A stretch of 64,000 bases of DNA. Source: Gammaproteobacteria bacterium (GTDB lineage: Bacteria > Pseudomonadota > Gammaproteobacteria > Enterobacterales > Kangiellaceae). Positions 1 through 56,876 of this stretch are shown here, one piece after another. The stretch covers positions 1 through 64,000 of the forward strand of contig JABXHY010000061.1 in NCBI GenBank assembly GCA_013373375.1. Reading direction: 5' to 3'. The position numbers and the translations under genes are program-made. The first letter of the stretch is position 1, and each line of letters opens with the position of its first letter. A model generated the notes under the pieces. The model had not been told where the DNA came from and did no database searches. It saw nothing but the letters and a program-made list of their open reading frames with translations.

Positions 1-2009
1 CGATCGGTATCGGCATTATCACCAATACCGTCACCATCTAAATCAGAACTTTCATTAGGATCTTTCGGAAAGGCATCGTTTTCATTTAAGACACCATCAC
101 CGTCTCGATCGGTATCGGCATTATCACCAATACCGTCGCCGTCTAAGTCTGACGATTCATTTGGATCATTCGGGAATGCATCGTTTTCGTTAAGAACACC
201 ATCGCCATCACGATCAGTATCGGCGTTATCACCAATACCGTCGCCGTCTAAGTCCGACGACTCATTTGGATCGTTCGGGAAGGCATCGTTCTCGTTTAGA
301 ACTCCATCGCCATCACGATCGGTATCGGCATTGTCACCGATTCCATCGCCATCTAAATCTGACCACTCCGTTGGATCATTAGGAAATGCATCATCTACAT
401 CTTTTACACCATCACCGTCTCTGTCATCACCCCACAAGAGAATTCCACGACTTCTGCCTTCGCGTCCCGCAATATCATTCCCGCGAACAGAAAAATGATT
501 TTCACTCGAATTTAACCCTTGAGTTAGTTCACAAGACATTCGATCTTCACTGATCGCAGTACAAGGGACATCGTTATAAACTCGACCATTTACCCAAAAG
601 TAAATATTTTCCGTCGGAAGAGGATTGTCATCTGAAAACTCGAATACAACTGTCGTTTTATTATCGACTAAACTATCCCCATAAGCAGGTGATATGATCG
701 TGAAAACCGGTTCTTGTAAATCTATATTAACTCTTTGAGAGAATCCTTTTTTATTACCTGCATTATCAATGGCAAGCCCAAACACTTCTTGATTTTGACC
801 TGCGGTACCTAAAGTAACCTCTGAATCACAATGGCGAATTCCACTAATCGTATCTGTACATTGAAATACTGCTTTTACAGGCTCTAAGTACCAACCGTTA
901 CTACTGAGTTGGCCAGAAATTGTTGCCGAAATTTCAGGCTTAACAATATCAATTAATATTTGAAAAATGAGTTCAGATGTATTGCCGTAAGTATCAGTTG
1001 CTTGAACCGATACTAAATTTTCTGAGGTCTCACCACTAAAAGACATTGGCGCAGGACAAGACTCGACCTGACTCTCTGAGTCTTCACAAGTAAAATTAAT
1101 ATTTACTGTTGAGTTAAACCAACCATACTCACCTGAATTACTATCTTGTGTTACTTCGATTTGTTGCTCTCCGCTAATTACTTGAGCAGTTATTTCAGGA
1201 GCAGTAGTATCGGGAGGAGTTAAGTCGAGAGCTGTCATAACAAGAGTAACAGCACTTCCAGGTTTACCAGCGAGTCTAATAGACCAGTTATTGTCCTCTA
1301 AATAAGAGACAGGAATTTCTAATAAGTTAACGTTTTTATCTAATCGATCACCGTCTTCAATTAAAACACCATTTAAATATAGTTCTAATGAGGTTGCTTC
1401 ATAACCGATAACATTACCATTTTGATCTCGTCCATTGTAAAGCTTTACTATTCCGGAGATACCTGATTGAGGCAGGGAAAATAAACCTGTTTCTGTTTTA
1501 GGCTTTCCTTTTTCGCGCACAAAAGAGTAAGGACCATCCACTATTTCTGAATTACTATCATCGTCTTCAGGAGGAGTAGAAGTAGAAGCGGTCATGTCAA
1601 CCATAACGGCACTTCCTTTTTTGCCTTCCAATTTAATAGACCAGTTATTTTCTTTTTGAAAGACGACTGGAATTTGAACAGAACGTTCTTTCCCTTTTAA
1701 TCGTTTACCATCTTCAATTAATTGATCATTTAGGTATAACTTGAGCTTTTTAACCTTCTTACCGATTTTATTACCGTCAAGATCTTCACCATTCGCAATT
1801 CTTACATGCCCAGGACTTCCGGAAGTGGGCAATGAAAAATGCCGTGTTTCAGTTTTTGGTTTTCCTTTTTGGCGCTCGAATACATAAGGTCCATCTACTG
1901 TATACTCAGCAGCAAATGCACTTACAGAAATGACTCCTGCAAAAATAACTAAAATCTTCCGACAATAGTTCGGAAGATCGTAAAGCTTACGAGCTAAAGA
2001 TAAAACCAC
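1..2009 (-). CDS. Secreted Ig-like protein with tandem thrombospondin type 3 (calcium-binding) repeats, 3' end outside window
   Basis: This is the fourth gene of the giant-protein operon, and it runs off the window without a stop. The chosen start is GTG at 2009: an AAGG lies 8 bases upstream and the frame is closed by a stop shortly before it. A Sec signal peptide follows (basic stretch RKLYDLPNYCRK, then ILVIFAGVISVSAFA, cleavage near AFA-AE). Residues about 34-140 and 150-260 are two related modules, each opening VDGPY.F.R.KGKPKTET and closing NNWSI.L.GK.GSAV. Three Ig-like segments follow (about 262-523), two of them with cysteine pairs. From about residue 525 the protein is 35-residue units rich in DGDG, DTDRDGDG and FPNDPNE, typical of thrombospondin type 3 calcium sites. 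It is probably exported to the surface or periplasm. The role is unknown; position suggests it works with the giant protein. It was missed as an ORF because it has no stop in the window. Confidence 0.88.
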   Translation of the reverse strand, partial: MVLSLARKLYDLPNYCRKILVIFAGVISVSAFAAEYTVDGPYVFERQKGKPKTETRHFSLPTSGSPGHVRIANGEDLDGNKIGKKVKKLKLYLNDQLIEDGKRLKGKERSVQIPVVFQKENNWSIKLEGKKGSAVMVDMTASTSTPPEDDDSNSEIVDGPYSFVREKGKPKTETGLFSLPQSGISGIVKLYNGRDQNGNVIGYEATSLELYLNGVLIEDGDRLDKNVNLLEIPVSYLEDNNWSIRLAGKPGSAVTLVMTALDLTPPDTTAPEITAQVISGEQQIEVTQDSNSGEYGWFNSTVNINFTCEDSESQVESCPAPMSFSGETSENLVSVQATDTYGNTSELIFQILIDIVKPEISATISGQLSSNGWYLEPVKAVFQCTDTISGIRHCDSEVTLGTAGQNQEVFGLAIDNAGNKKGFSQRVNIDLQEPVFTIISPAYGDSLVDNKTTVVFEFSDDNPLPTENIYFWVNGRVYNDVPCTAISEDRMSCELTQGLNSSENHFSVRGNDIAGREGRSRGILLWGDDRDGDGVKDVDDAFPNDPTEWSDLDGDGIGDNADTDRDGDGVLNENDAFPNDPNESSDLDGDGIGDNADTDRDGDGVLNENDAFPNDPNESSDLDGDGIGDNADTDRDGDGVLNENDAFPKDPNESSDLDGDGIGDNADTD
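3..435 (-). repeat. 105-bp tandem coding repeats (35-residue TSP3 units)
   Basis: The motif CGATC(G/A)GTATCGGC recurs at about 1, 106, 211 and 316, exactly 105 bases apart. A diverged unit starts near 421. Each unit encodes 35 residues with three Asp-rich loops (DRDGDG, NDPNESSD, DLDGDGIGDN). The two copies covering about 106-315 are nearly identical in DNA, which points to recent duplication or homogenisation. The array continues beyond the window edge. Confidence 0.9.
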
Positions 2010-2041
2010 AATGTTAACCTTAAATAGTTTGGCTTATTCCG

Positions 2042-2923
2042 TTAATTGTTATTTGTTTCAATATCACTTTGATATATAACTTCTGCTTCTTTGAGAATTT
2101 CTTCAGAAGCTTTTTTTATTGCTTTTCGTAATTGAATTGGTGCGAGTGATTTACGAATTTCTGAGCGAACTTCGGCCAATGGTTTCGGACTTACCGACTG
2201 ACTTTTGGTCACTCTAAAAATCATTGGAATGCCATCAATAAAGTGTACCGAAGAAACTTGATCTTGTTCTAAAGTCTGGATGATCGAATCAATTTTTGAC
2301 TTCAACACACCTTCTGTGACAGCTCCTTTCGAAAAAGATACGCCAAAACCCGAATCGGTCATTTGTTGCGTTGCCTTTTGCCAATCTGAATCGAAAGTTA
2401 ATTGATTCATTTTTTCCATAAGCTGTTTTCTTACATCACCGCTTAACTTCGAATTCGCTTTGATGACTTCATAAGTTCGAATTGTTTTTCCGCCAAACTT
2501 ATTAGGGTTATCGCGATAATATTCTTCGACCATTGATTCTGAGACAGGTACTGGAGTGATGTTTTGTTGCAGGTATTGTTTGGCTAATAACTCTTCCCGA
2601 TAAGCCGTTACTTTTCTTTCAAGTGCCGCGGTATCTTCAGGGCCCATATTGCTCAATTGCTTATCAGCCATCGCTTTACTCAGAACTAAGCTTTCAAGCA
2701 CTTTTTGGCGACCGGCTTCATCAAGTTGAAAAGCAGCAAGCTCTCCAACCGTTCTATCAATAGCACTATCAAGGTCTTCCGCAGAAATAGGTTTTCCGTT
2801 AACTTTCGCTAACCATGATGTCGTTTGCAATTCGGAACCTTGGTTCGATGAACTATTTTGTTCAGAACACGAAATTAAACCGAGGCTAACCAGAACAAAT
2901 AATATAATTGAGCTTCTACGCAT
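2042..2923 (-). CDS. SurA/PpiC-like periplasmic lipoprotein, parvulin domain apparently degenerate
   Basis: A lipoprotein of 293 residues: n-region MRRSS, hydrophobic stretch, lipobox LISC with Cys19 as the predicted lipidation site. Residues about 35-130 form a helical SurA-type chaperone region opening with AKVNGKPIS. Residues about 145-245 fall where the parvulin domain should be (start near RTYEVI, end near PMIFRVTKSQS). It lacks the usual histidine of the first strand, the GG.LGW turn and the GFH.I ending, so isomerase activity is doubtful and a chaperone role more likely. Overall layout resembles the EpsD/SurA/PpiC families. It starts 3 bases after the stop of the preceding isomerase gene, with its ribosome site AAAGG across that stop, so translation is probably coupled. 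Predicted location is the periplasmic face of a membrane. Client specificity for the giant protein is inference from the operon. Confidence 0.82.
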   Translation of the reverse strand: MRRSSIILFVLVSLGLISCSEQNSSSNQGSELQTTSWLAKVNGKPISAEDLDSAIDRTVGELAAFQLDEAGRQKVLESLVLSKAMADKQLSNMGPEDTAALERKVTAYREELLAKQYLQQNITPVPVSESMVEEYYRDNPNKFGGKTIRTYEVIKANSKLSGDVRKQLMEKMNQLTFDSDWQKATQQMTDSGFGVSFSKGAVTEGVLKSKIDSIIQTLEQDQVSSVHFIDGIPMIFRVTKSQSVSPKPLAEVRSEIRKSLAPIQLRKAIKKASEEILKEAEVIYQSDIETNNN

Positions 2924-2926
2924 TGT

Positions 2927-3742
2927 TTAACCTTTACTAACGTTTATGGTTTTCAATAAACGTTCCAGCTCAACCTGTTTTGCTTCTTTTCGCAATTGAT
3001 GACGGATATCGCCACGTACCCGCTCAAGCGGTTGTTTAACTACTGCAGGCCCTTCAATCAATTTAACAATATGAAAGCCAAACGAAGTTTTGAAAGGTTC
3101 TGATAACTCACCGGCTTTTAGCTGTTCAAATACCATTTTAGAAAAAACAGGATCAATCGCACCTTTGTTGATCCAGCCAACAACCCCACCTTTTTTCGCC
3201 GATACTGTGTCTTCTGAATAATCAGCAGCAAGTTCATCAAATGACTTACCAGCATTCAATTTACTGTAAACTTCGTGGATGCGAGTGTATTTGGACTTTT
3301 GCTCTTCTTCAGACATTTTGTCGTTGGTTCGAATAAGGATGTGAGCGACTTGAGCTTTCTGACTTTGGAACTTCTCAGCATTTGTCGCATAGTAATTACG
3401 GATAGCTTGGTCAGAGACCTTCTCATCCAGATATTGATCGAAATAGCGAGAAATAACCATTTGCTTTTTAAACTCTTCGAGTTCAACCTGGATTTTCTTA
3501 TCATCCAAAACATTTGTGTTTTCAATAGCTTGTGTAAGAGCTTCTCGTTCTAGGTACTCATTTAAGTAGCTCTCACGAAGGGTTGCATTAGATTTATCGA
3601 CTCGTTTAAAGTCCAAAAATGTCTCAAATTCAGACTTAGAAACACGAGTATCGCCCACTTTTGCCACACTCTCTTCGTTACTACAGGCAACGACTAAAGC
3701 TAATGTAGGGGCTAAAATTAAGGTTTTTGATAAAAAATTCAT
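2927..3742 (-). CDS. Parvulin-type peptidyl-prolyl cis-trans isomerase lipoprotein (PpiC/SurA family)
   Basis: A 271-residue lipoprotein with signal MNFLSKTLILAPTLALVVAC, where Cys20 follows a good VVA lipobox. Residues 22-125 are the helical SurA-like N-terminal part (AKVGDTRVSKSEF, then YLNEYLEREALTQ). Residues about 128-230 are an intact parvulin domain: QVAHILI with His134, GGVVGWINKG at 185-194, then PVFSKMVFEQLKAGELSEP and FGFHIVKL with His224. A charged helical tail follows. The enzyme would interconvert X-Pro bonds in proteins folding in the periplasm. It lies 15 bases after the giant gene and is followed 3 bases later by a degenerate paralogue, so an active isomerase is paired with an apparent pseudo-enzyme. 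Assistance in folding the proline-rich Ig and IPT domains of the giant is the natural inference but not shown. Confidence 0.92.
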   Translation of the reverse strand: MNFLSKTLILAPTLALVVACSNEESVAKVGDTRVSKSEFETFLDFKRVDKSNATLRESYLNEYLEREALTQAIENTNVLDDKKIQVELEEFKKQMVISRYFDQYLDEKVSDQAIRNYYATNAEKFQSQKAQVAHILIRTNDKMSEEEQKSKYTRIHEVYSKLNAGKSFDELAADYSEDTVSAKKGGVVGWINKGAIDPVFSKMVFEQLKAGELSEPFKTSFGFHIVKLIEGPAVVKQPLERVRGDIRHQLRKEAKQVELERLLKTINVSKG

Positions 3743-3757
3743 TTTGCTCTCTCTTAC

Positions 3758-6700
3758 TTAGGCAGCTTTCTTGCTGCTATTAATTGTATCCCTGTTGACC
3801 AAGCGTTCTGCGAGGTACCTCCATCGAGTCACATACTGCTTTTCCATGGAGGAATGCTTTGGATTCAAAAAATCTCTTGGGGAGATTGATTTTAAAACAG
3901 ACGCTTGGGTGTTGGGAATACCAGTGGTAATACTGCCAGCATTTATATTGCTAGAGTCATCAATAACTGAATTCGCAGGGTTGAGAACTCTAACATGGTC
4001 TTCACCGAAGTCCACGTTAGCGCCATTAGTAATCGATATTCGGTCGAATATATGGACGCCGATGAAGTTATTTCCCTCGAATAGACTCAAGTCATCATTC
4101 GTTTCAACTACTACTTGGTATTTTGTGTTTGAAACAATTTTATATAATGCAGATGTATTATTAGTGATATCCAAGCTAATGAAACTTCCAACAATCTGGT
4201 TTTCCATCCAAATAGCTTCTGGAGCAGCATTTTCTCCTTTAATATTCATAGTGTAAGTTCCCGATGAACCTGAATTAGAACCTGCTACTGCTTCACTACT
4301 CGAGAAACTATAAGCCCCAACTGCCAATATATAATCGCCAGCTTGCAGTACGCGACTTATTTTAGAAAGCCTCCCAGCACCGCCATCGTCGTCTGAAGCC
4401 ACGAGATCGCCAGTATCTAGAGAGCCATCGTCCCTAAATAAATGCATTTGGGTATCAAATGTCCCCACAACCGCTTCTAAAACTATTGTTTGGTCACTAG
4501 TAACTGTAAAAGAATGATACTGAACTGAGCCTGTTCCACTCGATGTAATACTTCTTTGTTCATTAATCTCTTCAAAAATATCCATGCCTACAGATGAAAT
4601 TTGCCATAAGCTATTTCCTAAACTAGTAATCGAAGTCGCAGGATGAAGACCTACCGGGTTAATCTTAGTCAAACCAAAATTATCCAAACCCGTTGTGCGG
4701 CTCACTCTTAAAGAACCATACTGCTCTCCTGGCTTCTGATAAACAATCGTTCCTGAGCCTGCAATATCAGATTCTTGTGCAGGGTAAAAAGTATCAGCTT
4801 GAACCGTTCCTGAAAAAGAGTCGATAGAATTAACTTGCACATTAATTCGGCCCCCTGATGATGGCTTATTGTCATTTAGAGCCAGGTCGTAGCCAGTACC
4901 TTGCGCTTCAATAACGCCTGAACCGAAAGACTCGTTTACAGTTATATTAACTCCACCTCCTGCTCCCCCGAACTGATTATTCGATGATGCTTGACTGCCG
5001 TTAGCTCGAATAATGCCATCCAATACCAGAGAGTTTGCTTTCAGAATTAGTAAACCGCCTCCCGCTGCGTCATATCCAGCACCTGCAGTGTCAACGCTCC
5101 TATAATTTCCATATACACACTCTAGGCTGTTCAATCTCGCAGTTAAATTCAATCCACCATGACAGCCTTTCTGTTCAGTACTATTGGGGCCAGAGTTTAA
5201 ATAGCCTTTGCCATTTAAATCGATCATTGAAGGAGTATTATCAATGGATACCTCGCCGCCAACATCTATATTAAGGGGAAATATCCCTTGCTCGGTCGCA
5301 TTCGCCGTCGTTAATACAGCGCCACCAGACAAACTCAAATCACCAAGTATTTTTAATTGACTTCCAAGCGATGACTCAACAACTGAATTACCCTCAATAA
5401 TTAACGAGCCTTGAACTGTAAGGTCAGAATTAATATCCAATTTAAGCTGTGTTCCATTAGATACAGTTAAATCACCTTGAACTCTCACGCTCCCAATTGA
5501 AGAAATAACTTCAGACAAACCGCTATTAAAGTTCATCGATGAATATAATTTTTCAGCGTTAATCGTCACACCACTAAAACTTGTTTTTAGATATTCAATT
5601 AATTCCGAAGAACTTGATGATAAATTAAGACCTGAACCAGCTCCCAATAATGAATCACCTAAGTTCAAGACAACAACCCGATCGTCGCCAAAATCGACAT
5701 ACGCACCACCAGAAATCGTCAGTGAATTTAAGACATGGACGCCTATTAATTTTTCTCCAATTACTGGTTGAGTGTCAGATTCGATAGTAAAGGAACATTC
5801 CATGTTTTCTAAAATTTGATACAACGGGGCATTAGGGTTATCTGCATCGAGACTCACCTTTAAACCTTTCAGACTTCTGTTTTGTATCGAGTTAAAGTTC
5901 CAAGGACAGCTTCCTTCAGTTTGAGTAACGTTTACTCTCCACTGATTGCTTGTGGATATTTGTCCTAAACTATCAATCGTATGTAAACCAACACCATGTA
6001 TAATAGTGGTCGCTACTTCAGACATATTATCTGCGTTATCAACGACTAAATCTCCTGCAGTGCCGACTTCTCTTGCGATAAAGTAAGTACCTGCACCACC
6101 AACATCAGAGTTACTTGATGAAAATTCACTACCCGTCGCGACCGAAACGTTCCAAAACTCTGTATCAGGTGAAATAATACTTACACGTCCACCACTGGCA
6201 ACTTTATTGTTTGCTTGTGAAACATTGTAACCAGCACCGCGAACATTAATGAATCCATTTCCGGATATACTAGGCGCAGTAATTTTTACGCCTCCTCCAG
6301 ATCCACCTGGCTGAGAAGAGTTATTTGAAACACCTCCATCAGCATCAATAGAACCATTTAGCAATACTTCAGCTGCAGATATCTTTAAGTAACCACCACC
6401 AAAAAACTCACTACGCCCTGATCCTGCAAACTGAGAATCAAAGTAATTGCCATATGCACAATCAAACTCTGCAGCTCTCGTATCACTTGTCGTTCCAGCA
6501 TGACAAGAAAATGCATCTCTAACGCGAGGAGATTCATTCCCTTTATTGTTTAAATCAACTTTAGAAGTCTGATCAATCTCAACAACTCCAGTAACTTCAA
6601 ACTTAATTGGAAAGTAAAGATAAACCGGATAGTTATACTCTAAACTTACTTCAGAGAGCGGGTCGAGAGCCGTTATTGTGCTACCATTGAGCGCTCGAAT

Positions 6701-9700
6701 ATTTTCGTCAACCAATATTTCGCCTCTTACACCTAAGACCAACGACGAAGCACTATCTAAAATAATAGAGCCCGTAACATTAAGATCTTCAGATGAGAGA
6801 TCATAACCTTTGTAGAAACCCTCAAACCCATCTGTTTGAAGTGTTAACTTCGCACCATTGATTAGGTTTATAGATCCATCAATTGTGATTCCACCTTCAA
6901 AAGCATCCAGAACCAAATCAGAGCCAGCTCCATCTAAATCGATATCACCTTGTACATGAATATTTCGAGCAGAATATTCTTCTGCAACAGAACCACTAAT
7001 GCTAGTGCCCGCAAGATAAAGAGTATTATTCAATAAAATTTTATCATTAGCCTTGAAGTGCTCAATTACCTCTATTGAACGTTCCGAAACGGTCAAACCA
7101 CTGTTCTGATCGATTACAGAGTTCTCAAGATCGTTAACAATTAAAATATCTTCACCAAAGGATACATTCGCTCCTCGGGTAATCTTAATCGTTTCAAGCT
7201 CATGAATACCGATCAGTTTTTTACCGACCAGATTTAGAGCAGTCAAATCATCGGTGGTTTTAATAACCATTTCGGTATTGCCAAGACTTCGGTCAACAGT
7301 ATAAAGAGGTCCATTAGGATCGTCTGCTCCAAGTTTCACAGTCAATCCCTGTAACCCTTTTACCCAATCTAACTGTCCTGTCGCTAACCCCCAACCAAGC
7401 CATCCAGATTTTGATTCAACTCCTATAGTCCACTCTCCCGTCGAAGTATTTTGAATTACAGAATTAATTACGTGTTCTCCAATTGAACGAATTGGCGTAA
7501 AGCCTCTACGATCTGTCCAGCCGTTATTATCAACAATTAAGTGGCCCGGTATGGACTCGCCAGTTGTAATATAGGCGGTACCGGCTCCTGCGACTTTCTG
7601 TCCAGATTCCATTTCTGTCCAGTAACTCCCTTCTTCCGTTTTTGGTTGATACTCGCTGCCGACTTCAAGACTGAAGTTCATAGTGCTGGTATCCGGAGAA
7701 TAAATGCTTATTCGTCCACCGCCGCCAATATCATGCCCTTCAGTAGAAGTTACGCTCCCTGAACCACGCGCAAAAATACTACCGTTCCCTAATATTCGAG
7801 TTGTTGCCTCGAGGTGAACACCACCGCCAGCGCCTCCTCGACTCCCGGCGTAAGTATTTATTCCACCGTCAGCATCAATAACGCCATTAATTTCAATTTC
7901 GTTTGCTTTCAACCAAAGTAGGCCACCGCCGCCAGCACCAAAAGACTTACTGCCAGCAAACTCAGCTTTGCGGAAATCTCCATGCGCCTCAGCATATCCT
8001 GTTCGGTTATAAGGTTCTCCTCCGTGCCCACCAGAAAGGCCCGACTCAGTTTGCAAACCTTTAAGATCTATTTTAGAAGTAGCATCAACAGTCACTTTAC
8101 CTGTGACTTCTATTTTGCCTTTTACTTTATTGATCAAGGTAGTACCGTTGGTAATATTTAAGTCACCACGAATTAATAATCCTTCACCTGTCAGCTCATG
8201 TGTTGCACCATCGGTAAAGTTACGGGTTGTCATATACTGAACACCATTAATGACTATACTTTCCGCAGTTGGCTCAAAATAACTAATGAGTGCTGTTGAA
8301 GAAGGCGATAAATTAATTCCCGCATTATCAATCTCAGAGTTAGCAAGATCATCGACCAGGACTCTGTCACTTCCAAAGTCAACGTAAGCCCCACCAATAA
8401 CTTTAATAGTGTCAAAGTGATGAACTCCTATTAAAGAATTGCCAACGAAACTACTGATATCGTCTGAAGTTCTTATTTGTAAAGAATTATAATTATTGCT
8501 GATAACCTCATAAAGCTTTGCACTTGGATTGTCTGAGTCCAAACTAACCCATAATCCTTTAAGACCTGAGCTTGGTTCTGAGTTCGAAGAAGTCCAATTA
8601 GGATTTGAAACAATTACACGCCACAAATCATTCCCACCGTATGGTTGATCAACTGATGTAATAATGTGTTCTCCGACATTTCGAAGATAAGTCGATGGGC
8701 GAGAAGTTAACTGCCCGTCATTATCAACAATTAAATTTCCAAATTCTGAACTAACCGTTTTATAGAAAATAGTTCCTGCACCTGACGGTTCATTCGATCC
8801 ATATGGAAAGTCACTTGCAGTGACAATATTGCTAATATCAAATTGACTCATATCATCCACATCAAAGCTGATGCGCCCACCACCAGAATTCAAGTTATTG
8901 GGGTAATATGTTTTGTGACCTCCAGCTCCTCGTGCAGATATAGCTCCCGTTCCTCGTAAAGTTTGAGCTTCAATGTGAACGCCACCTCCAGAACCGCCAT
9001 AATAACTTGAGTTTCCAGATCCGGTTCCGTTTACATTGATCGAGCCATTAAAGGAAAATTGGCTGGCACTGATAGTTAAAAGCCCACCGCCATCACCATA
9101 TCCGTTTCGACCTTCAAGACCTGAAGTTGAAACAACCCGATAATCACCATAGGCACATTTAACTTCAGTTGAAATTTGAGAGTGAACACCTCCATGACAA
9201 CCTCTCCAAGAGGTGTTAAAAGAAGTTGTCACTTTGCCTTCTAAATTAATAGACGACGTTGAGTCGATTGTTAGATCACCTTCAACTTTCAAAGAAAGCT
9301 GTTGATTAGTGGTACTTAAAATACTATTGACCAATAAATCTAGATTACCTTTCACGGTTACAACATCGTCAACATTTAGATTCAAAGTTGATCCATTCAC
9401 AACCTGAATATTTCCACCAACTTTGAGAGCACCATCGATATTTAAATTAGCAATTGTTGATTCACCGACTAATAGGTCACCTACAATATAAAGGCCTTCG
9501 TAGTAATTAACTGTGTTATTGGTTCCGTTATCAAGCTGTAAATAATCTAAATAACGTAAACCATTAACAGCAAAACCAGTGCCGAGAGTGTCAATATAAT
9601 TTAACAGTTCAACAGAACGAGGTGATAAATTTATTCCACTATCACTCGCCAACTCAAACTCTGTTAACTGATTGATAACAACTACATCATCACCAAAGTC

Positions 9701-12700
9701 AACATAAGCACCATTTCTTACTTTTAAACTTTCAAATGTATGAACACCTACCAATCGATTACCAACAACATTAGATAAATCAACGGTCGAATCAATAACT
9801 AAAGAGTCATACGAATTTGACACTACTTCATACAATGGTGAGTTAAGGTCATCAGCATTTAAAATTAAATGAAGTCCTTGTAATCCATGCCCTTGCATAA
9901 GATCTGTTTCTCTCCAGTTTGAATTGGTAACTCTAATTCTCCAACGATTTGAAGTACCAATTCGCTCAACAGAAACAATTTCATGCTCACCGATGCTTCG
10001 AATTGGTGTTAGTGGTTCTTCATTCAAAGCACCACCAGAGTTATCTATGACTAAAGAACCATAAGGCAACGACTTGTTTCGAGTGTAAATTGTCCCTGCA
10101 CCACTTGGGTTATCATCAAAATAGCGTCCATAAGAAGAATAGGTTCCAGCAAAAGTATCAACATTACTGAGCACGCTGATACGTCCGCCACCGCCTTGAC
10201 CATTTGCTTGCAATGACCCAGTGCCAGAAAAAGCATCAACATCAATATGAATACTTCCACCGGATCCGTTACCATTCGCCAATATTTGTCCATCAATCAA
10301 AGCAGAATTAGCCAGTAAACTGAATACACCACCGCCACCACTCTTTCCAGGGAACTGAGCATGGTCATAGCGTCCGTATTGACAGTCGCCAAATGCACCG
10401 ACGTTGATTCCCGCATGACATGCATCGCGATCACGCCAACTGCTTAATTCACCTTTATTTGAGAGATCAATTTGAGCATTTGCACCTAACGCAAAACTGC
10501 CCGAAACTTCCAGGTTAATCGAGTGAATGATATCAGAACTGTTTACATCGCTATTGCCTTCTAAAGGATCAGCTGCACGCATAACTGCACTATCTGTGAG
10601 GCTTACATTACCTTCAACAAATACAGTACCTGTTGTTGCAAATATAAGTTCGGCGTCACCCGCTAAATTGATATCGCCTTGAACCACAATGTTGTCACCT
10701 GACACCGTTCGACTCTCACCAGCCGACATTGTGATCGCATCAATTAGTTGCTTTCCGTTAAATGTAAAGCCAGGTTGATTTTCGATGAAATAATTAATCA
10801 GTGCAGTCGAGCTTTCAGACAACTTAATAGCGCTGGTCCCATCAATGGAAGAGCTAGCCAGATCATTAATAACCACTCGATCATCGGCAAAATCGACATG
10901 TGCACCATTAAGAACATTGAGTGTTTCAAAAATATGAACACCTATCATCGTATTGCCGATGAACGCATCAAGAGGAGTCGAAGACTCTACGGTTAATGAC
11001 TCTGATGTATTCGAAATAATTCGGAATGTATCATCAATGTCATCATTCGCATTGAGATCAACTCTTAATCCTGCAAGTGCACCTTCTTCCCAACGATACT
11101 TAGCAATATTGCTATTTACCGTCAATGAATAAGAACCTGTTGCATTTGAATTGTCATCGTTTATTGGGGGAAAGTCGCTATCCCATTCACTTTCACCGTT
11201 TCCTAAATCATAGTAGCTAACAGGCTCAGAAGTCACAGCTAAAATGTAATCCCCCGCCGGCAGCTCGATACTCATCAGCGCAGGCTTAGTTTTGAAGTTA
11301 TTTTGCGCAACAAGATTGAGAGATCTTTTCGACTCTTCACTATCCCACCGAGGAGGCCCATCATCGTGCCCGGACCAGATATAAAGCCAAGGGTCAAGTC
11401 CGTAGCCGTAATCTTTGAATAGGTAAACATAAGGCGTAATGCCCATGCCAGTTGCATCGATTTCAACCACCTGTTGTTGTTCAATTGTAAAGTTGTGTTG
11501 ACCGACTCGCTGTTCCTCTTCTTCTCCGATAACGCCAGACTCTTCAATGTTAATTTGCCCAACATTTATGACTTCTAACTCAGGTTCTACTAACCAGGTA
11601 CCATCACCTAAATCAGTTACTGCGGAGATAGCTTTTAGGCCAACGCTTTGAATTGGCGTAAGTCCTAATGAGTCTTTATTGCCATTGTTATCGATTGTCA
11701 AATGACCAAACTCAGAGTCATTTGTTTTATGGAATATGGTCCCAGCACCAGAGTTAAGACCACCAGAATGAGCAATTGTATTTGCTGTAGTGATGCTTCC
11801 AGTAAATCCAGTTTTGTCATCGACATAGAGGCTGATTCTACCGCCACCACCAGCGACGTAATAATTATCTTCGTCAGTATCACCTCGCGCTTCTATTACA
11901 CCAGAACCACTCAGTAAAGCAGTTTCAATATGGATACCACCCCCAGCGCTTCCAGGCATCTGCCAACCATCACTGTAAGGACGACCATTTGCCAAAATCG
12001 AGCCGTGAAGTACTAGTTCTCCAGAGGTAAGAGATAAATTACCGCCACCGCTAACAGCGAAGCCCCAACCATCATCATAACCATCGCCGATACTAGCAGC
12101 ACCGGAGTATTGTGCTCGGCGATAACTGCCATAAACACAATCTCTCGGATCTTGCTGACCGGCTCCAACACCACCATGACAGGAAGCATTAGTTTCATTA
12201 CCGGTTGGCAAGCCGTATCGGTATGTACCGCCCTGAACATGAATAGTAGAATTTTCATCGACAGTTATTTTGCCTTCGACTGAGATATTAAACGATTCCT
12301 CAGGACAGTTTTCATAGCAGTCTGACGGATAAACATTCGCGTTAGTAATATCCAAATTGCCACCGACTGTGAGTTTCGAGAATAGAATAGTGCCTCCATT
12401 TATTACGACATTACCCAATACCTCAACACCTTGTTCAGTGTAGAACTCACCGCCATTAGTAATTAATAAGTCACCTTCAATAATAACTTTCTGAGCATAA
12501 ATAGCGGTGCTTGCTGACATGATAAAATCATTTTTAACACGTAACTCGCCGTCTGTTTCAAACTCACTGCCAATAGATTCGATACTGTTAGCGACTACAT
12601 TACCGGTGAAGGTTAAATATTCTTCTAACCAAACTGCATCGCCAAGCGCTGTTGCGCCTGTTACTTCGAGCATTACAGAATCCGCTGTCGATGCGAAATC

Positions 12701-33700: not shown

Positions 33701-36700
33701 ATGAACCAAAGAAATCCAACCCGGCGCATAGAAGTTTTCAACTTCTTGAATTTCCGTGACATCATCAGGTTTTGCAGAAGCTGATAGCAACCCTTTCCCA
33801 AGTACATAAACTAAATTCAGCTCAGTATCGGTGGTTAAATCAACAATTACACCTGGAGGAAGCTTACCTGGATCAGGAGTATAAATTTCTTCTCCAGACT
33901 CGAATTCAATTATCTCTTTACGCGTGAACGCTCTTTGAGTTTCTAGTGTGCGATTAGCACTGAGGCGCCCAAAGAATAATGCTCTTGGCAAAATGGCTGA
34001 ACGACCTCTTTCATCGGTAACTTCAAGGTCAATAAATCCTCTGAAGTCATCACCAAAATCAGGAACTACCCACTCCATTCTCTCGGCGCTGTACAATGTC
34101 AATCTGTCTTGATCAACGACGTCCACCACTGTATTGTCCGGCTCACTAGATCGATAAGCGGTTAACTTAACGTTACTATTGAATCCATAACCCACAATCT
34201 CAACACGATCGTTTTCGCCAGCTTGGCTGATATTCACAACAGCAGGAGAAACAAATGATAAACGTAATTGATCAACGTATCTGAACGCTCCTAATACTGT
34301 CACCGATAAGTTTTCATTATTAGTCACTTTTACTGCTGCCGGTCCAGCGTAATTAGACACAGTTGTCGCGTAAATTTTTTCAAAAGGATCTTCTGAAGTG
34401 GCAGCTTCTAATTTTTCAATTGCCAATAACTGTCCACCAAGCTCTACAACCGGTGAATCACCAAAGTTTGTGCCTCGAATTACAATCGGAGTTCCACCAG
34501 AAATGTCTCCTTGTGATGGATAAATAGAAGAAAACTCTGGAGCCAGTTCATCGCCAGCTGCTGAAGTTACAAAGTGCATCAAGTAATCGTGTGACAATGC
34601 AAATCCAGTTAGCGGACTTAGCCCTGCTTTTAACCGTACATAGTAATGAGTTGCAGGAGATAATTGACTATTCTCTACAGGCGTTAATTCTATAAATCGA
34701 TAAGCTGGCTGATTATTACGTTGAGCAAAGTTAATATTAAATTGATTCGTGACATTTTGACCGATGATAGGATCAGACACGAGTACTTCGATGTAGTTGG
34801 ATAGATCTATCGACGGAGGTAATACCGACGATAACTCTATGGAAATCTTTTGCAGATTTGTTGGAATATCGAACGCATCCTGCATTGGTTGATGACGTAA
34901 AACAGTCAATGCAGGCATTTTTACAGACTGCACACCTTGCTTACCGCCAGCAATTTGTAATGCTCCCCGTGCTACAATTAACCCTCTCGCACCAGGCTCA
35001 ACTTCGCTTGGCGATTTATGTGTGATAATCGGAGTAGTCGCATCCCGTGACGTATCATCTATATTACCGAGGTCAATTATTTCTACGATACCTTCAACAG
35101 GTTTATCTTCTTGATCAGAAGAATACACACTGACATAGGCGAAGTTTCCAACTACTGACACATCATAAACACCAGAGGGCTGATAATCTTCACGCGCAGG
35201 CTTTAGGTCTATACTTTTTGTCAATCGTGGCTGATAGGGATCTGCAACATCAATAATGTTAAGTTGAGAAACGAGTCCATCACCCGACATATTGGTGACA
35301 AATATTTTATTACCAAATATTTCAACTTTATTAGCAACGCCTAATGTATCGAGCGAAGCAATAATCGGTAAGCTTGGTTGCGTTAAATCGGCAATCACTA
35401 ACCCTTCGTATGAAGCTGCAATGAAAGCAAAATCTCCAGCAATTTTTACATCTCGGCTAAAGCCATTCGGCTTGATATATCCAATATGATAAGGCGCATT
35501 AATATTACTTAAATCAACAACCTGAACTCCACCAAAACCATTAGCAACAAGAGCAAGGTTATCTTTTCTATCGACGCCATACACATCTTTATAGGGCATA
35601 TCGACTCGACCAGTTAATAGATATGGCAATCCAAATTGCCCATCTCCATTTCGTGTATTAAATACCAGTAATTCACCCGAGTCATTTTCAGGATAGATCT
35701 CCCCTGTGTCAGTGAACTTTTGTATTTCGGTGTTTAACTCTTTGGCAAATATTGGCGAATTACTGTCTTCGATCTGTCCACACGCTAAGACACATCCGAA
35801 CTCACCTGACTTTGATGCGAGAACAAATGAGCTGTCAGAATGAACTTCTGTAATTGTTCCACGAAACATTTCTGCAGCACCATTTAATAGTCCAGAGAAT
35901 ATGAATCGTTCTCCACTTTCTGTCGCTTCAGATTCATCAATAGCATCTGCCAAGAAAATACCCGTCCAAGCAGGATTACGATTTCCCAACTCTGAGTAAT
36001 TTGACATTGTGCTAAAGCCCATTTCCGCCTGAGAAGGACTAATAGTTGACCAAGCACCAACTAATGCTCCATCACGAGTTTCACTTTGAAACTGATCAAG
36101 CGCAGAGTAATAAACTGATTTAGCGATGTCTTTTTGCATTGAAGAACTTTGAGAAACTGTTTTCCCATCTTCTAGCGAAGGTATCAAGAAACGAGTTTCC
36201 GTAATATCAAGCCCAATTTCATGAGTGCTTTCATTTGATACTGTATGCACTGGCGTATAAACAGTGGTTACAACTCTTACTCTCTCATTATCGCCACTGC
36301 CTCTGAATAAAATATTACCATCAGAAAAATCGGCCCAGTAAACATAGTAAAAGTTGTTTTCATCACTTGCAGGTAAGTTCTTGTTCTCTGCACCTTGGTC
36401 ATCTCGGAACAACTGTATTTCACGTTCCGCGATTGTTATCCAAGTACCAGTAAAATCACGGTATTCACGAATCCATTTTTGTCGAACTTCACGTTCAAAT
36501 TCAGAACCAATATCTGTCACGCTTACAACAGCTGTTAAGGTTTTTCCTGCTGTAAGAATTTGTTTGTTAAATGGTTGAAGAATACTGAGCTTTGGTTCTA
36601 CAGTGTCTTCAATAATTCCTACTCTTACGACATTAGACTCAGTACTATGCCCTGCTACATCATAAGCTACGGCTTGAATCACAACACCTTCAACGCCTTC

Positions 36701-39700
36701 AGGAGGAGTTAAAACAGCCCTATAGATACGATCCAATGAGTAGCCACCTGATGTTTCACCATAGGATTCATAAGCGGTATAAACTGGCGTATCGTTCAAA
36801 TAAAATACGACCCGATCAATACCCGTCGTTCCCAGATCGTCACGCACCTCTGCAAAAATTTCGATTGATTCTCCATCGATTACAACCGATTCATCATTTG
36901 ATGGCTTAACGATCGATATTTCTGGCGGTAAGTCTTCAACTACAGTGAAGTTTCTTGCTGACGAGAGGTCCGATTCGTAGCCATCAATATCAATTGCAAT
37001 AGCTCGATAGCTGATAACATCGTCTACTGATAATTGCTTAGCATCTTCATTAAACTGGAATGGTGCAGCACTGTCTTGACCTACCAGTTCGTAATCGGAT
37101 TCACTTTGCGGGTTTACTGCCTTGAATAACTTGACTCGATCAACACCGACTTCAGCATCTGAAGCGATGACATTAATTACGAACTCTCTCTGTTCGGTTA
37201 TCTTTTCCACGTTACCGAGCAGTATTCCCTGAGGATCAAGCAGTTGAATTCGATCGACTTGCGGAGGTGAGTTTCGATTAAGTTGAACAACTAATTTGTC
37301 TTCACCAACATTTCCAGCACCATCATTTGCTTGTATAACAAAAAGTAACTGTAAGGTTTGCTGGTCTGAATTCTCATCGCCAATATATTCAGCAATAGTT
37401 CGAATTGGAAGGCTGCCACTATAAGGAGGGCTCATCATATAACTTTGTTCAAGCAACTCGTCATTAGACAAAGAGTTATCACCGTCTCGATCAATACCAA
37501 GTAGCGCGGTAGCTCCCTGAACTCTTACCGTATCAGTAATCGATGCGACAAATGGAAGAGTTCCTTTTTCTACTATCTGCGCACCTGTGCTATTTGGTTG
37601 CTGAATAACAACAACTGGTGCTTCATCGTCTTTTTCAACTTGTAATGTCACGGTTTGATTAGTCGTAACCGTTCGAGCTTCACCCGATGCCCGATACTCT
37701 GTTGCTGTTGCCGATAAAACAATGTCTTTCCCAGCTTGTCCGTAAGGAATCTGTAATAAAAATTCATAAGGCGCTCGACTGTCGGTTAGGGATTTTGCTC
37801 CATCAATTAATCCATCAGCATTCAGTACAACGTGCTCAATTCCAACATCATCGATAGCATTTATTTGTACGAGAACACTCGAACCTTCAAGATGAGCGGA
37901 TTGATCAGCTGGAAGACCAATAACTACAGTAGGAGGCATATCTTCAACGATTTCTAAATTAATTTGCTCAACTGCACGATGTTTATCAGGATCACTTCCA
38001 TTAACACCATAAGTGTCGATGGCCTCGGCATAGATCTGTAGCGTGTTATTATTGGAGTTCGCTGAGTCAAACTCAGGAACGGTCAAAACAAAATTATAGG
38101 GAGGCTGTCGTAACAAACGATTAGCGATTTCAACTTGACTGTCGCCAAAACGAGCAATCATACGCACTTGTTGAATACCAACATCGTCAAACGCAGTTAC
38201 AGAGATAGGTAACTGACTTAACTCAACAACTTTTTCACCATCAACAGGAGTTTGAATATCAATCGTTGGTTTTTCATCGACACGCACTGGAAAGCTAACT
38301 TCAGCTTCAGCTTGATTACCATTCGCGTCAGTTGCGACAATTCTAAACCATACATCAAATTGCTCGTTCCCGGTCACACCAAAACTTGAGAATGTTTGAA
38401 CCAAATCATTTAATTTTGGAACATTCACAAGATGCTGGTACAAAGGCGTATCAATATTTTCCGTGGAGACAATCTGGAAATCTTGAGCGGGAATTCGGTC
38501 AATATCTCTTACTGGCAATCCATAATCCAACAATTGATAATTTGATTCCGATATTCTCACGCCATATGATTGGAACAGTTGTAAACGCTCAACTTTTGCA
38601 TTATCAAAAGCTCTGAAACCAACAGTAAAGTCACTTCCCTCTACTGCACCGAATCCAGCTTTAGGATCGGTTAATAGTACATTTGGTTTAATTTCATCTT
38701 CCGCTCCGATAATAGTAATTTCATCAAAGCCTTCCGCGTTATCATTATCTTCGACAGACGCGGTCAAAATGTAACTTTCATTCTGTTTAATTAATGAAGC
38801 AGGAAAAGAAAGGATCCAGGACTTTGTTATGGCATTTGGACTGCTTCGAAGTCCGTACTCATCAGCTACCTGAATGCCGTACTTGTCTTCAAATTCATCA
38901 TAAATTTCATTAAATGCCTGTTCTATGATCGCATCACCGCCAGCGTCAGAAGCTCCTTCAGCTAATGTCACCTCATATCCATCGATGAAGAATTTAACAT
39001 TTCTGGTATTTAATGGGCGATCATCTGCTGCTGCAACCGCAACTTTGATTCTGAAGGTACCACCAACAATAAATTGTCCTTCTGCAGGAACCGTAAACCT
39101 TACAGCAGGAACGACATTGGAAAGAGGATGAACAATAAACTCTCGTCTCGAGACTTGTGCTAAGTTGTCAACCAGTTCCAGTTCGTAAATCGTACTCTCA
39201 ACGTCATTAAACTGTATAGTTGTTGAGTCAGATGTTCGTGTAACGGTTTCTTCAGGACATTGAGTGCCATAGAACTTTTCTGTAACCTTAGTTTTGCTAC
39301 CATCCTGATTTAACTTCCAAATTCTGTACTCGCTTAAACCTGAGTCATCAGTTAATGCGGTTCGAACTGTAAAGTTACCACCCGATCGGACCCAAAACTC
39401 ACCGTAGTTTAATCTCTCAAGATCCGTAATCGAACGGTCAGCAGAAAACTCTACTAAAGAAATTATTGGGAGTTCATTATTGTCTACGGGCACTTCAACA
39501 GTTGACGTACTTGAGTTTCCACTTGCATCGGTCGCAATAATTGTAAAATCAACAGTCGAGCCTGCTCGTAAATAATCTGGCAAGTCGTGTTGTATAGAAA
39601 AATCGTCTTGCTGATAAAGACCTCCTAACTCACGGACTAATTCGCCGTTAACGAGTAACTTAATTGACTCAACACGACCACTGTTATCCGATAATCTACC

Positions 39701-42700
39701 CGTTATATTTAAGCGCTGTGCAGCGACTACGCTTAAGTCCGCACTAGGAGAAGTAATTTCAAGTGTAGGAGGCTCTTCATCCGTCACTACTTGTTGAGAA
39801 TTTAAACTGTTGAGCGCGAATTGGCCTCGTTCTTCAGTAAACCGATCTGAAACGACTGCATACACTGAATATTTAGATAGGTGAGTTAAATAAGGTATAG
39901 GTGACAAATACGCGGTTTCAATTTCTAAATCTTCTTGTGATGAGAAAAACCGGTTATTTCCAGCATGAATAAATGCAGATTCACCATTGTTGTTTTGATC
40001 GTCTAATAACAAGAAAATCTTATGGTCATTTTTGTATACCGTTTGACGAGTATTGCCACGTCGATAATTATTTACGCTCGACTGATTCTTTGAGAAAACT
40101 CGAACACCTTTGATAAAGCTTTTAGTGCTAGTGCCTCCTGTAAATTCAGGAGTAATGTCAATTGCAACAACTTGGCCACCAAATAAGCTACTCAATACCA
40201 CCCCTGAAGTTGAGTCTATGACTTCTTCTTTCAGCAATGCAGTACATTGCTCATCTCCGTAATACTTAACTTTGTAACTAATGGCAGTATTGTCAGTAAA
40301 ATCAAAATGTAAGTTAGATAATGAAACCTTGGGCTGAGGATGAACTATGAGCTTTCCATTTTTAAACTGAATGTAATCTTCGTCATTAAGCTTTAAAGAA
40401 CCCTCAACGTCTAAACTCTCTGGGTACTCCCATTGAGTCGCGTAATAAAGGAATTCGCTCGCACTATTTGTTACTCTAATTTGCTGAGGGTTACGCGAAA
40501 TTTGACCGGACTCAAGCTCGAAATTTGAATATAAAGGGTAGAAGTTAATTCTTTCTTCAAGGTCTTTTCCAGTATAATCATCAACTACCGAGAAAGTTTG
40601 ATAACTAGCACCACCATTTATAAGCTGAGAATCAGGGGAAATATCAGAAAGACTAACCTGTGGCGCTAAATCCTTTTTAACTTTTATTACGAATGGATAA
40701 CTTATAGCATTGCCACTTGTGTCAACTGCTTTCACTAACAATGTGATATCCATACCTTCATCAGGTACTGGATTATATTGGTTTAAATCAATTTCAAGAT
40801 TAGGTGTCTGTTGTGTCTTAGTTATTCTCAAAGACTCTTCATTCAAGCCACTGTCACTAGCCAGTAGAACCGGCACTTGATTATCAGAGTTTAAATAAAT
40901 TTCGTAACTTTCAACGCCCATATTGTCATTTATACTGACAATTACAGGCAACACCTGTCTTTCCACCACAGTGGACTTAGGTTGATTAACAACAACTTTC
41001 GGAGCATCGTTATCGGCTTCAATAGTAAAGTCGACTGAGTTTGAATTCTTTTTATTGACGCCTTTATCGGTTACTACAACTTTAAGCTTAAATGTATTGC
41101 CAGCTTCACTAATCAAATCCTTTGGCAATTTTATTTCGCCTTCAAAATCCGTTTCAAAACGTGTTGCAACGACAACTTCTCCAATCGTAATAGGGTCAGG
41201 AACTGTAACAGACTCTTCTCTATCGTCACGAATCAGTGTTGCCCAGGCAAGTTCGATTTGAGTGCCGTCTTCTCGTTCTAAAATAGGTAATACATCATTA
41301 ATTATAATATTATCGTTGGCTTCACCTGATACTCGGAAGGTGTTTCCTGGTAACACGCTTAAAGCTTGCTTCGGCTCAAGCATTACAACGTTTGGTGCTT
41401 CTAAATCATCTAATATATCAATATCTACTAAAGACTCGGCTTGTAAGTTTGCATCGTCAGTAACACGAACACCGATTTCAATGTCTCCATTCGAATCACT
41501 CGAAGGAACTACAATACTGTGGGTCAGATATTCATCTGGCCTAATTTGATTGCGGCTGAATGTGTGTGAATAAATAATGCCTTTTACGGTATCACGTATA
41601 AAAAACTCAGCTGACACAACTTCAGAGTCATCACTCACTTGCGCAACTAAAGTAAATCTTTCTCCTTCATACAATCGGCTTCCATTTGCAGGAGAGCGAA
41701 TAGTGACACTAGGAGGTATTTCGCTTGCAACTGAGTAAGACCAATCAGATGTTGAAACGTTATCAAAAGTGTCGGTAACATCTACTTTAAATGTTACGTC
41801 AGTCGTACTTTCAGGCACAAGATAATCAAAACTACCGTCTATTTTTTTCAACGACGGCTGTTCACTTACAACAGTTGAACCATTGATAGAAATAGAAACC
41901 GATTTTAATTTTGAGTTATCACGAGCTAACCATTTAAACTCGTAATTTCGACCTGCGTAAAGTGAAACCGAAGGCACAGGCGAGTTAATCTCGCCATAAG
42001 GCGCTGTTGTGTCCGCAGTAATAGTCGCACTGGAAGTTTTATCTTCAGATAATTGATCGGTGCTGTCTGTCGCCTGAACGACAACTCTTATGCTAGAGTT
42101 TTCATTAGTTAATCTAAGTTCACCCAGCTTTAATTTAAATTGAGATGTTGAATTCGGTGACGCCAGCAATCCACTTTCGGTGTCTTTTACAATTGTACGA
42201 ATAGCACTCGTTGAATCGCCAATATAAAAATCCGCTTTAATACCAGTAACACCACGATCATCAGTAGCAAATACGTTAAGGGTTAATTCATCATTAGGAA
42301 AATAATTACTTTGATTAAAAGTTACCTCTTCCACCACTGGCCTTTGATCAGAGATAACTCCTATAACTCGTTCTTCTCTTGAAAAGTTACCGACTTCATC
42401 ATAGACAGTAACAATGATTGGATAGCTGTCGTATTCGGTGTTCGGCAGATTTGAAAAGCTAGGTGCAGTCACTAATCGAATTGCAGAATAAGCGTTTAAT
42501 CCACCCGGAACCGACTGTATTTTAAAATCGTCGCCACTAATTATATCGCCTGCATTACCCGTTAGTCGAAACTCATTACCAACTTTAATAACACCAGCCA
42601 ACTCTATATTCGTGGCACCAACATTATCGTATCCGGTTGCTTTGATAACTATTTCACTATTTTCTACAACCTGACTAATATTATTAACGCCACTTAAGTT

Positions 42701-46516: not shown

Positions 46517-46788
46517 TCGAAGTCCAGTTCTCAAAATTTTCGGTCGCGGATTATAAAGTATTCCAATAAACGAAAGAACCTGTATCAAAGGTTTAATCGG
46601 CTTCCTACTCAGTAAATAATACCAACCAGTATTACCAACAAATATTACGAGTCTAGTTCTCATCCGTAAGAAGAATCAGAGGGAAACAATGGTACTGCTT
46701 ATTTACCTTATATAAGTGATTTTAAATTTCATTTAATGGCAAATGAATTCTGAATACTATGAAGCTTGAAAAATTGAATAATACTAAA

Positions 46789-56594: not shown

Positions 56595-56876
56595 ATGGCA
56601 CGCGCAACAGCACGACATTTATTAGTGGACAGTGAAGACAAATGCAACAGCATTAAACAACAAATCAGTGACGGTGCAAGCTTTGCAGAAATGGCAAAAC
56701 AGCACTCATCGTGCCCTTCTGGTGCCAATGGCGGAGATCTTGGTGAATTTGGACCAGGACAAATGGTAAAAGAATTTGATGAAGTTGTGTTCAGTGCTCC
56801 AGTCAACACAGTTCAAGGGCCGGTTAAAACTCAGTTCGGCTACCATTTACTCGAAGTAACGAGCCGCACTGAATAA
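56595..56876 (+). CDS. ppiC: Small cytoplasmic parvulin, peptidyl-prolyl cis-trans isomerase PpiC
   Basis: A 93-residue single-domain parvulin without signal peptide, the length of E. coli PpiC. It contains RHLLV with the N-terminal active-site His, FAEMAKQHSSCPSG, then GGDLGEFGPGQMV, FDEVVF and the ending FGYHLLEV with the second His. It accelerates X-Pro isomerisation in the cytoplasm. The ATG is preceded by AGGAG at good spacing. A CCGTTAG/CTAACGG inverted repeat lies in the gap before it (56539-56564), and a strong terminator follows. It is unrelated in position to the two lipoprotein isomerases of the giant operon. Confidence 0.94.
   Translation: MARATARHLLVDSEDKCNSIKQQISDGASFAEMAKQHSSCPSGANGGDLGEFGPGQMVKEFDEVVFSAPVNTVQGPVKTQFGYHLLEVTSRTE

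What the first reader, a model, noticed from the sequence alone, without database searches (positions are those of the whole stretch)
1..45370. Four-gene operon: giant protein, two isomerase lipoproteins, calcium-repeat protein
Spacings of 15, 3 and 32 bases on one strand join a giant Pro-rich secreted protein to a parvulin lipoprotein, a degenerate parvulin lipoprotein and a TSP3 protein. Dedicated folding factors next to a giant client suggest a self-contained assembly system for a surface structure. This is the best candidate for an undescribed system in the window.
Basis: partly seen in the sequence, partly recalled or inferred. Interest (0 to 1): 0.85.

Follow-up and report, generated by a model that had tools for sequence, protein, structure and literature searches.

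The report
Giant-scaffold bacterial toxin delivery locus
A gene for a very large bacterial protein (about 13,900 amino acids) sits in a conserved gene set with two helper proteins and proteins that have swappable toxin-like ends, so it is probably part of an undescribed system that bacteria use to poison other cells.

Summary
The giant gene (13,870 aa), two parvulin lipoproteins and TSP3 gene are real, with spacings 15, 3 and 32 bases; the giant is not Pro-rich (3.9%). The TSP3 gene (d1) runs off the contig; its end and a further gene (d2) lie on contig C19. Giant - active parvulin - degenerate parvulin - d1 recurs in 16 loci under 12 family labels of one class (giant cut by the contig edge in 4, unrecognisable in one of those; divergent in one locus); d2 follows on the same contig in 13. 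All 8 strong hits of the degenerate parvulin in 295 order genomes lie beside a giant. Residues 1 to about 10,700-10,900 align in 11 of 11 other full-length giants (30-60% identity). d2 has a trunk of about 920 residues without a known family, then exchangeable C-termini: D..ExKS nuclease-like (11 of 23), Rhs with HINT, M15 peptidase, alpha/beta hydrolase; small differing genes follow many, and orphan C-termini occur. This is polymorphic-toxin architecture. Best reading: an undescribed toxin-delivery locus with a 1.3-1.6 MDa scaffold and a SurA/PrsA-like chaperone pair. Toxicity, immunity and delivery are inferred; some genomes have trunk pieces without the rest.

The parts
3758..45370 (-). giant secreted protein, 13,870 aa (about 1.5 MDa), ATG at 45370, Sec-like signal by eye
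   Evidence: colinear homologues
12671..45370 (-). conserved core, residues 1 to about 10,900: Big_7 Ig-like, then LVIVD/TIG/Big_5 modules
   Evidence: Pfam; aligned with 11 of 11 other full-length giants to residue 10,660 or beyond, 30-60% identity
3761..12670 (-). C-terminal region of about 2,970 aa with internal repeats and Gly-rich motifs; probably beta-solenoid (inference); matches only some other giants
   Evidence: self-comparison and cross-comparison
2927..3742 (-). ppi1: parvulin lipoprotein with intact His/Asp/Trp/His positions, 271 aa
   Evidence: positions conserved in 16 of 16
2042..2923 (-). ppi2: degenerate parvulin lipoprotein, 293 aa, homologous to ppi1 but without the first active-site His
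   Evidence: 0 of 16 have the first His, 2 of 16 the second
3..2009 (-). d1, N-terminal part (669 aa): Sec-like signal, Ig-like, TSP3 repeats; cut by the contig start, rest probably G000:C19:7756-11718
1..420 (-). TSP3 repeat array in d1, 105-nt unit, at the contig edge

Best explanation
The window holds the front part of a polymorphic-toxin locus of a type I found no description of. Shown: giant - ppi1 - ppi2 - d1 is conserved over 12 family labels (d2 following on the same contig in 13 of 16 loci); the giant core is colinear over about 10,700-10,900 residues; d2 has a constant trunk and exchangeable C-termini of nuclease-like, Rhs, peptidase and hydrolase types, often followed by small differing genes, with orphan C-termini in two genomes. 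Inferred: the components cross the inner membrane by Sec. The lipidated pair (one parvulin with intact active site, one degenerate) acts like a split SurA/PrsA, holding or folding the giant and/or d1-d2 in the periplasm. The giant becomes a long cell-surface scaffold of Ig, TIG and propeller domains ending in a repeat region. d1 joins or anchors d2. On contact the d2 C-terminus enters a neighbouring cell, and kin are protected by the downstream protein. Export over the outer membrane is unknown; type II secretion is the best candidate, as its secretin is in all 12 carriers tested and no two-partner transporter lies in these loci.
For: Order in 16 loci. 8 of 8 strong ppi2 hits in 295 order genomes are giant-adjacent. 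Giant core aligned in 11 of 11 others. Active/degenerate parvulin pair kept in 16 of 16. d2 trunk conserved, tail exchanged: two d2 copies in one genome are 64% identical over residues 1-951 with no further match. Tails: D..ExKS in 11 of 23, 1 of 4,600 shuffled (pattern written after seeing the tails); PT-HINT 70.3 bits, Rhs core 63.8 bits; RHS_repeat 123.9; M15 26.7; alpha/beta hydrolase 29.3 in G643, below cut-off in G463. Orphan tails in G038 and G052. Downstream genes go with the tail type: M15 tails are followed by related proteins in two classes (29-31% identity), the two hydrolase tails by related proteins (27%), and 6 of 10 proteins scanned behind D..ExKS tails share a Trp-rich N-terminal motif, as does that of G223, whose tail is unassigned. 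G182 keeps only a giant N-terminal stub and distal genes. T2SS secretin in 12 of 12.
Against: No expression, toxicity, protection or surface location is shown. The window's own d2 (1,128 aa) and one of G052 end in a short tail with no recognised toxin (G052's tail was not scanned in Pfam, NCBIfam gave nothing). In G168 the giant is divergent. Trunk without the rest: G114 (100% complete) has a trunk cut by a contig edge but no strong ppi2 or giant hit in the genome; G411 has two trunk fragments with unrelated genes upstream; G730 has trunk and tails with no giant, ppi or d1 in the 80 kb read. In the order sample all three markers are found together in 7 of the 12 genomes with any. 4 of 10 proteins behind D..ExKS tails lack the shared motif. 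Models were weak (pLDDT 52.6, 56.0) and fold searches not significant. T2SS is common, so not specific.
Confidence: 0.64

Rival explanations
1. One reading: a surface adhesin or fibre with dedicated folding factors, no toxin role; the d2 proteins are further surface proteins.
For: Ig, TIG, LVIVD, TSP3 and LamG-like domains are typical of adhesion; the window's own d2 lacks a recognised toxin tail.
Against: Rhs plus PT-HINT, M15, hydrolase and D..ExKS tails, orphan tails and tail-matched downstream genes are not adhesin features.
Confidence: 0.15
2. A secreted toxin complex aimed at eukaryotes (grazers or hosts); the giant is a cell-binding body and the downstream genes protect the producer.
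For: A giant adhesive body with hydrolase and Rhs tails would suit either target; Rhs-like toxins act on both (recalled). No target was tested.
Against: Downstream genes go with the tail type, and M15 (peptidoglycan-type, recalled) and nuclease-like tails with orphan tails point to bacterial targets.
Confidence: 0.12
3. Two independent things side by side: a giant surface protein with its chaperones, and a toxin cassette that settled downstream.
For: Divergent giant in G168; trunk pieces without giant or pair beside them in G730 and G411 and no strong giant or pair hit in the complete G114.
Against: Same order in 16 loci and 12 family labels; several clades shared by giant, ppi2 and d2 trees; d1 follows the pair in 16 of 16.
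Confidence: 0.08

Closest known systems
Polymorphic toxin systems (Zhang et al. 2012, PMC3482391; passages read)
   Same: Constant N-terminus with exchangeable C-terminal toxin-like domains, PT-HINT and Rhs in some, small downstream genes, orphan tails.
   Different: Its abstract names at least eight secretory systems, among them types II, V, VI, VII, PVC, PrsW-dependent and MuF; a giant scaffold with a parvulin pair is not named there, and 'parvulin' and 'peptidyl-prolyl' gave 0 matches in the main text held (the first 300,000 of 357,715 characters).
CDI (CdiB/CdiA two-partner secretion; recalled, plus abstracts in search listings)
   Same: Very large secreted protein, toxin tail, immunity gene, contact reading.
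   Different: No CdiB-like gene in the loci; ShlB over cut-off in 3 of 12 carriers. The toxin-like tail is on a separate protein, not on the giant.
Rhs toxins
   Same: Rhs core and HINT in some d2 tails.
   Different: d2 has a Sec-like signal (by eye) and its own trunk; most tails scanned have no Rhs repeat.
SurA / PrsA parvulin chaperones
   Same: ppi1 has the domain and active-site positions; the best solved matches are SurA, then others including PrsA.
   Different: Lipobox, one parvulin domain each, split over two genes of which one is degenerate, tied to one locus.
VARTIG modules of Thermococcales (PMC8416519; abstract and outline read)
   Same: Large Ig-domain protein upstream of variable genes, likened by its authors to polymorphic toxin systems.
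   Different: Archaea; the hypervariable part is the C-terminal Ig domain of the large protein itself; parvulins are not mentioned in the abstract.
EpsD-type isomerases and MtsC
   Same: Weak profile similarity of ppi2 (48.8 bits) and of d1 repeats (59.6 bits).
   Different: Both far below the curated cut-off (108.9 and 350).

Membership tests
Polymorphic toxin systems | constant N-terminal part with exchanged C-terminal toxin-like domains | tested here: met
   d2 trunk aligned; tails differ between and within genomes
Polymorphic toxin systems | immunity gene directly downstream | tested here: inconclusive
   small tail-matched genes after many d2; protection not testable; not assigned after G335
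Polymorphic toxin systems | orphan tail/immunity cassettes | tested here: met
   G038:C26 17641-19267, G052 1990811-1993373
Polymorphic toxin systems | known delivery marker domain in the trafficking part | tested here: not met
   no trunk match at E 0.01 in Pfam (four d2; one chance-level row, E 0.26) or NCBIfam (two d2)
CDI two-partner secretion | cognate CdiB/TpsB transporter | tested here: not met
   ShlB over cut-off in 3 of 12 carriers, none inside a locus, none in G000, G038, G052, G168; in G335 a sub-cut-off hit lies about 32 kb away
CDI two-partner secretion | TPS haemagglutination domain in the large protein | tested here: not met
   not among Pfam matches of the window's giant at E 0.01
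Rhs toxins | Rhs/YD repeat shell | tested here: inconclusive
   profile hits in 2 d2 (G564, G335), by eye in G659; not in the other 12 d2 or tails given to Pfam
T6SS effectors | PAAR/VgrG linkage | not tested
   no T6SS gene search was run
Parvulin (PpiC-type) isomerase: ppi1 | Rotamase domain and active-site residues | tested here: met
Parvulin isomerase: ppi2 | active-site residues | tested here: not met
   first His absent in 16 of 16, second present in 2 of 16
EpsD (TIGR02925) | score over curated cut-off | tested here: not met
   48.8 against 108.9 bits
PD-(D/E)xK nucleases (11 tails) | D..ExK motif in an alpha-beta-beta-beta-alpha-beta core | tested here: inconclusive
   motif present; predicted order of elements fits but pLDDT 52.6; top fold hits AddAB and CidB have E 0.4-1.2; no such Pfam hit

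The most novel reading that the evidence does not exclude
A further, undescribed kind of contact-dependent toxin delivery in Gram-negative bacteria: a 1.3-1.6 MDa single-chain scaffold whose first 10,700-10,900 residues are kept colinear across orders, built with its own lipidated active-plus-degenerate parvulin pair, presents exchangeable toxins carried by a separate trunk protein (d2) through the adaptor d1.
Probability: 0.5. Interest if true: 0.93.

Novelty: new variant of a known kind. Interest (0 to 1): 0.84.

Why it matters
If true, it adds a delivery route to polymorphic toxins and gives a function to some very large conserved bacterial proteins. It also makes two questions testable: how a 1.4 MDa chain is kept competent for export and folded, and why an active and a degenerate parvulin are paired in every locus seen.

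Tried and rejected
Adhesin-only reading: kept as rival, weakened by the d2 tails. CDI: rejected as membership. EpsD and MtsC labels: below cut-off. Plasmid-borne trunk: no match in 72,556 plasmid records at E 1e-5. Anti-phage defence: no PADLOC match at E 0.01 for the 6 proteins scanned. Structure: tail model (pLDDT 52.6) and trunk model (56.0) gave no significant fold match; no solved relative by sequence of ppi2, trunk or giant residues 4701-9300; two chance-level rows for the tail. Promoter scan upstream of the giant: 2 sites against 1.9 expected, no terminator. First genome-contig scan with ppi1 alone found nothing; the second with four ppi2 found 3 loci, already in hand. Papers: 10 searches gave listings with starts of abstracts (none); beyond that I saw passages of PMC3482391 and abstract plus outline of PMC8416519. 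I saw no description of this locus. The library holds no bioRxiv and few subscription papers, so absence in print is not established.

Rows dropped before counts: weak ppi2 hits G146 and G203 (E 5e-13, 9e-11) and G012 (2e-4); seven giant hits of E 5e-15 to 4e-11 that cover only an Ig stretch. Not among the 16 loci because the pair was not seen: G094, G114 and G549 (trunk at a contig edge), G411 (trunk fragments with unrelated genes upstream), G730, G055, G182. Of 23 d2 tails or tail pieces listed, 14 were given to Pfam (in one search the last 520 residues).

Full report
1. What is in the window. The minus strand carries a 13,870-aa giant (3758-45370), a parvulin lipoprotein (ppi1), a second parvulin-like lipoprotein (ppi2) and the start of a TSP3 protein (d1), with gaps of 15, 3 and 32 bases. 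The giant is 3.9% Pro, so 'Pro-rich' is wrong. Pfam sees Big_7 Ig-like domains in the first third, LVIVD, TIG and Big_5 in the middle, and Big_1 and TSP3_bac near residues 10,100-10,800. The last 2,970 residues are internally repetitive. Signal peptides were judged by eye throughout.

2. The locus does not stop at the window. Contig C47 begins inside a 105-nt TSP3 repeat. A search with the downstream part of a relative's d1 found the rest of d1 in this genome on C19:7756-11718, followed by d2 (4352-7738, 1,128 aa) and three further genes, x3, x4 and x5. That C19 follows C47 is inferred from homology; the gap is not closed. In Pleionea sediminis (G038) the same break lies between C9 and C26.

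3. Conservation of the order. Within the family, strong hits of both isomerases are in 4 of 40 genomes, each time after a giant. Names come and matching contig lengths: G038 = Pleionea sediminis, G001 = Aliikangiella coralliicola, G005 = a Kangiellaceae MAG. The window's own genome has the same genus label as P. sediminis and is therefore probably a Pleionea (inference). Trunk searches in order (9 of 295 genomes), class (8 of 369) and phylum (3 of 398) samples and a ppi2 search in the order, with neighbourhoods read, bring the loci with the pair to 16: G000, G038, G001, G005, G052, G058, G168, G223, G050, G051, G659, G564, G335, G776, G643, G463. They bear 12 family labels of one class. d1 follows the pair in 16 of 16. 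d2 follows on the same contig in 13; in G000 and G038 it is on another contig, and G051's contig ends inside d1. The giant is full length in 12 (11,925-15,046 aa, longest frames) and cut by the contig edge in 4 (G005, G051, G643, G463). In 15 of 16 the upstream frame is a recognisable giant; in G463 it is a 348-aa edge remnant without a match. In G168 the giant is divergent from ppi1-ppi2-d1-d2, 488 bases apart.

4. Specificity. The ppi2 profile gave 8 strong hits (E < 1e-80) in 295 order genomes: 8 of 8 are beside a giant; two weak hits were dropped as generic. The giant N-terminus gave 9 strong hits in the same sample: 7 have the pair beside them; in G055 the giant runs off its contig; G182 is a decayed locus with a 223-aa stub followed by x3, x4 and x5 relatives. 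The trunk was found in 9. All three markers are found together in 7 of the 12 genomes with any. The other five: G051 has the pair (with a giant's end beside it) but no trunk hit, G055 and G182 have only the giant, and G094 and G114 only the trunk. G114 is listed as 100% complete, so its lack of the other two is a result against a strict unit unless contigs are missing.

5. The isomerases. Profile comparison joins ppi1 and ppi2 (probability 99.2). In an alignment of 16 pairs ppi1 keeps His134, Asp178, Trp190 and His224 in 16 of 16. ppi2 has Tyr, Leu, Phe or Ile at the first His position in 16 of 16, and His at the second in 2 of 16. The nearest solved relatives of ppi1 are SurA chains; PrsA chains follow. 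A simple lipobox pattern was found in 13 of 16 ppi1 and 15 of 16 ppi2.

6. The giant. The window's giant aligns with 11 of 11 other full-length giants from near its start to residue 10,660-11,262 (13,821 in P. sediminis) in one stretch at 30-60% identity; the C-terminal part matches only some. Giant, ppi2 and d2-trunk trees share (G776,(G001,(G000,G038))), ((G659,G564),(G058,G168)) and (G223,G050), the last with low support for ppi2. G776, G659 and G564 belong to other orders than the window's, so transfer between orders is suggested. The ppi1 tree is poorly supported and places G776 and G659/G564 elsewhere. Distance correlations between genes are modest (Spearman 0.35-0.64).

7. d2 is built like a polymorphic toxin. 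The d2 proteins share a trunk of about 920 residues (10 aligned) with no match at E 0.01 in Pfam (four d2 scanned whole) or NCBIfam (two) and no solved relative by sequence. Two d2 copies of P. sediminis are 64% identical over residues 1-951 and then stop matching. Of 23 tails or tail pieces listed: 11 carry a D..ExKS motif (1 of 4,600 shuffled does; the pattern was written after seeing the tails); G564 has Rhs plus PT-HINT (70.3 bits), G335 Rhs repeats, G659 Rhs-like repeats by eye; G643 an alpha/beta hydrolase over cut-off and G463 one below it; M15 peptidase in G038 (26.7 bits, over cut-off) and two in G730 (one 22.0 against 23.2, one by BLAST); G000 and G052 a short tail without a match; G223 and G549 unassigned. 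Orphan tails with their own following gene occur in P. sediminis and G052. The genes behind the tails go with the tail type: M15 tails are followed by related proteins in P. sediminis and G730 (29-31% identity), the two hydrolase tails by related proteins (27%), and 6 of 10 proteins scanned behind D..ExKS tails share a Trp-rich N-terminal motif, 4 of 10 do not; the one behind G223's tail has it too. G001's was not scanned. Their role as immunity proteins is positional inference.

8. How it may work. Sec-like signals or lipoboxes place the components in the envelope (sequence reading). A parvulin pair related to SurA would guard or fold the long chains. The giant core, about 120 Ig-sized domains as a rough count, could reach several hundred nanometres (inference from recalled domain size). 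d1 would link scaffold and toxin. Outer-membrane export is open: no two-partner transporter in the loci and ShlB over cut-off in only 3 of 12 carriers, while the T2SS secretin is in 12 of 12 but is common in such bacteria (recalled).

9. Against this reading. No function is shown. The window's own d2 has no recognised toxin tail; its effector may be x5, which has no Pfam match and has relatives with a short-tail d2 in G052 and in decayed G182. G730 of another class has trunk and M15 tails without a giant, ppi or d1 in the 80 kb read. G411 has two trunk fragments with unrelated genes upstream. Both structure models are weak.

10. Known or new. In 10 literature searches (listed under Tried and rejected) I saw no description of this locus. 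Polymorphic toxins are a known kind, so I file it as a new variant, with the giant-scaffold delivery as the new part.

Noticed in passing
window 48035-51145 (-): Hybrid two-component regulator (TPR, HisKA, response regulator, AraC-type HTH) about 2.7 kb upstream of the giant; no such frame noticed upstream of the giant in P. sediminis (by eye).
   Followed up: partly
L048-L049, L064 (G001:C5 about 502-534 kb): In Aliikangiella coralliicola, genes resembling a contractile injection system (sheath, tube, baseplate, by eye) lie divergently next to the giant; not noticed at the other loci.
   Followed up: no
L062:322-4342; L083:3891-8043; L180:7361-9537: Three-gene set x3 (HEAT-like), x4, x5 (about 800 aa, HHLED-type motif resembling zinc phospholipases, recalled) follows short-tail d2 in two genomes and survives in part in a decayed locus of a third.
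   Followed up: partly
L174:10085-16095 (G730, another class): Tandem M15-tailed d2 pieces alternate with related proteins, near a transposase-like gene (by eye), with no giant nearby.
   Followed up: partly
window 56628-56861 (+): A third parvulin, a stand-alone PpiC-type domain (80.5 bits), lies in the same window away from the locus.
   Followed up: no
window 45863-46663 (-): A 266-aa protein with a sub-cut-off Gcw_chp match is the gene upstream of the giant.
   Followed up: no
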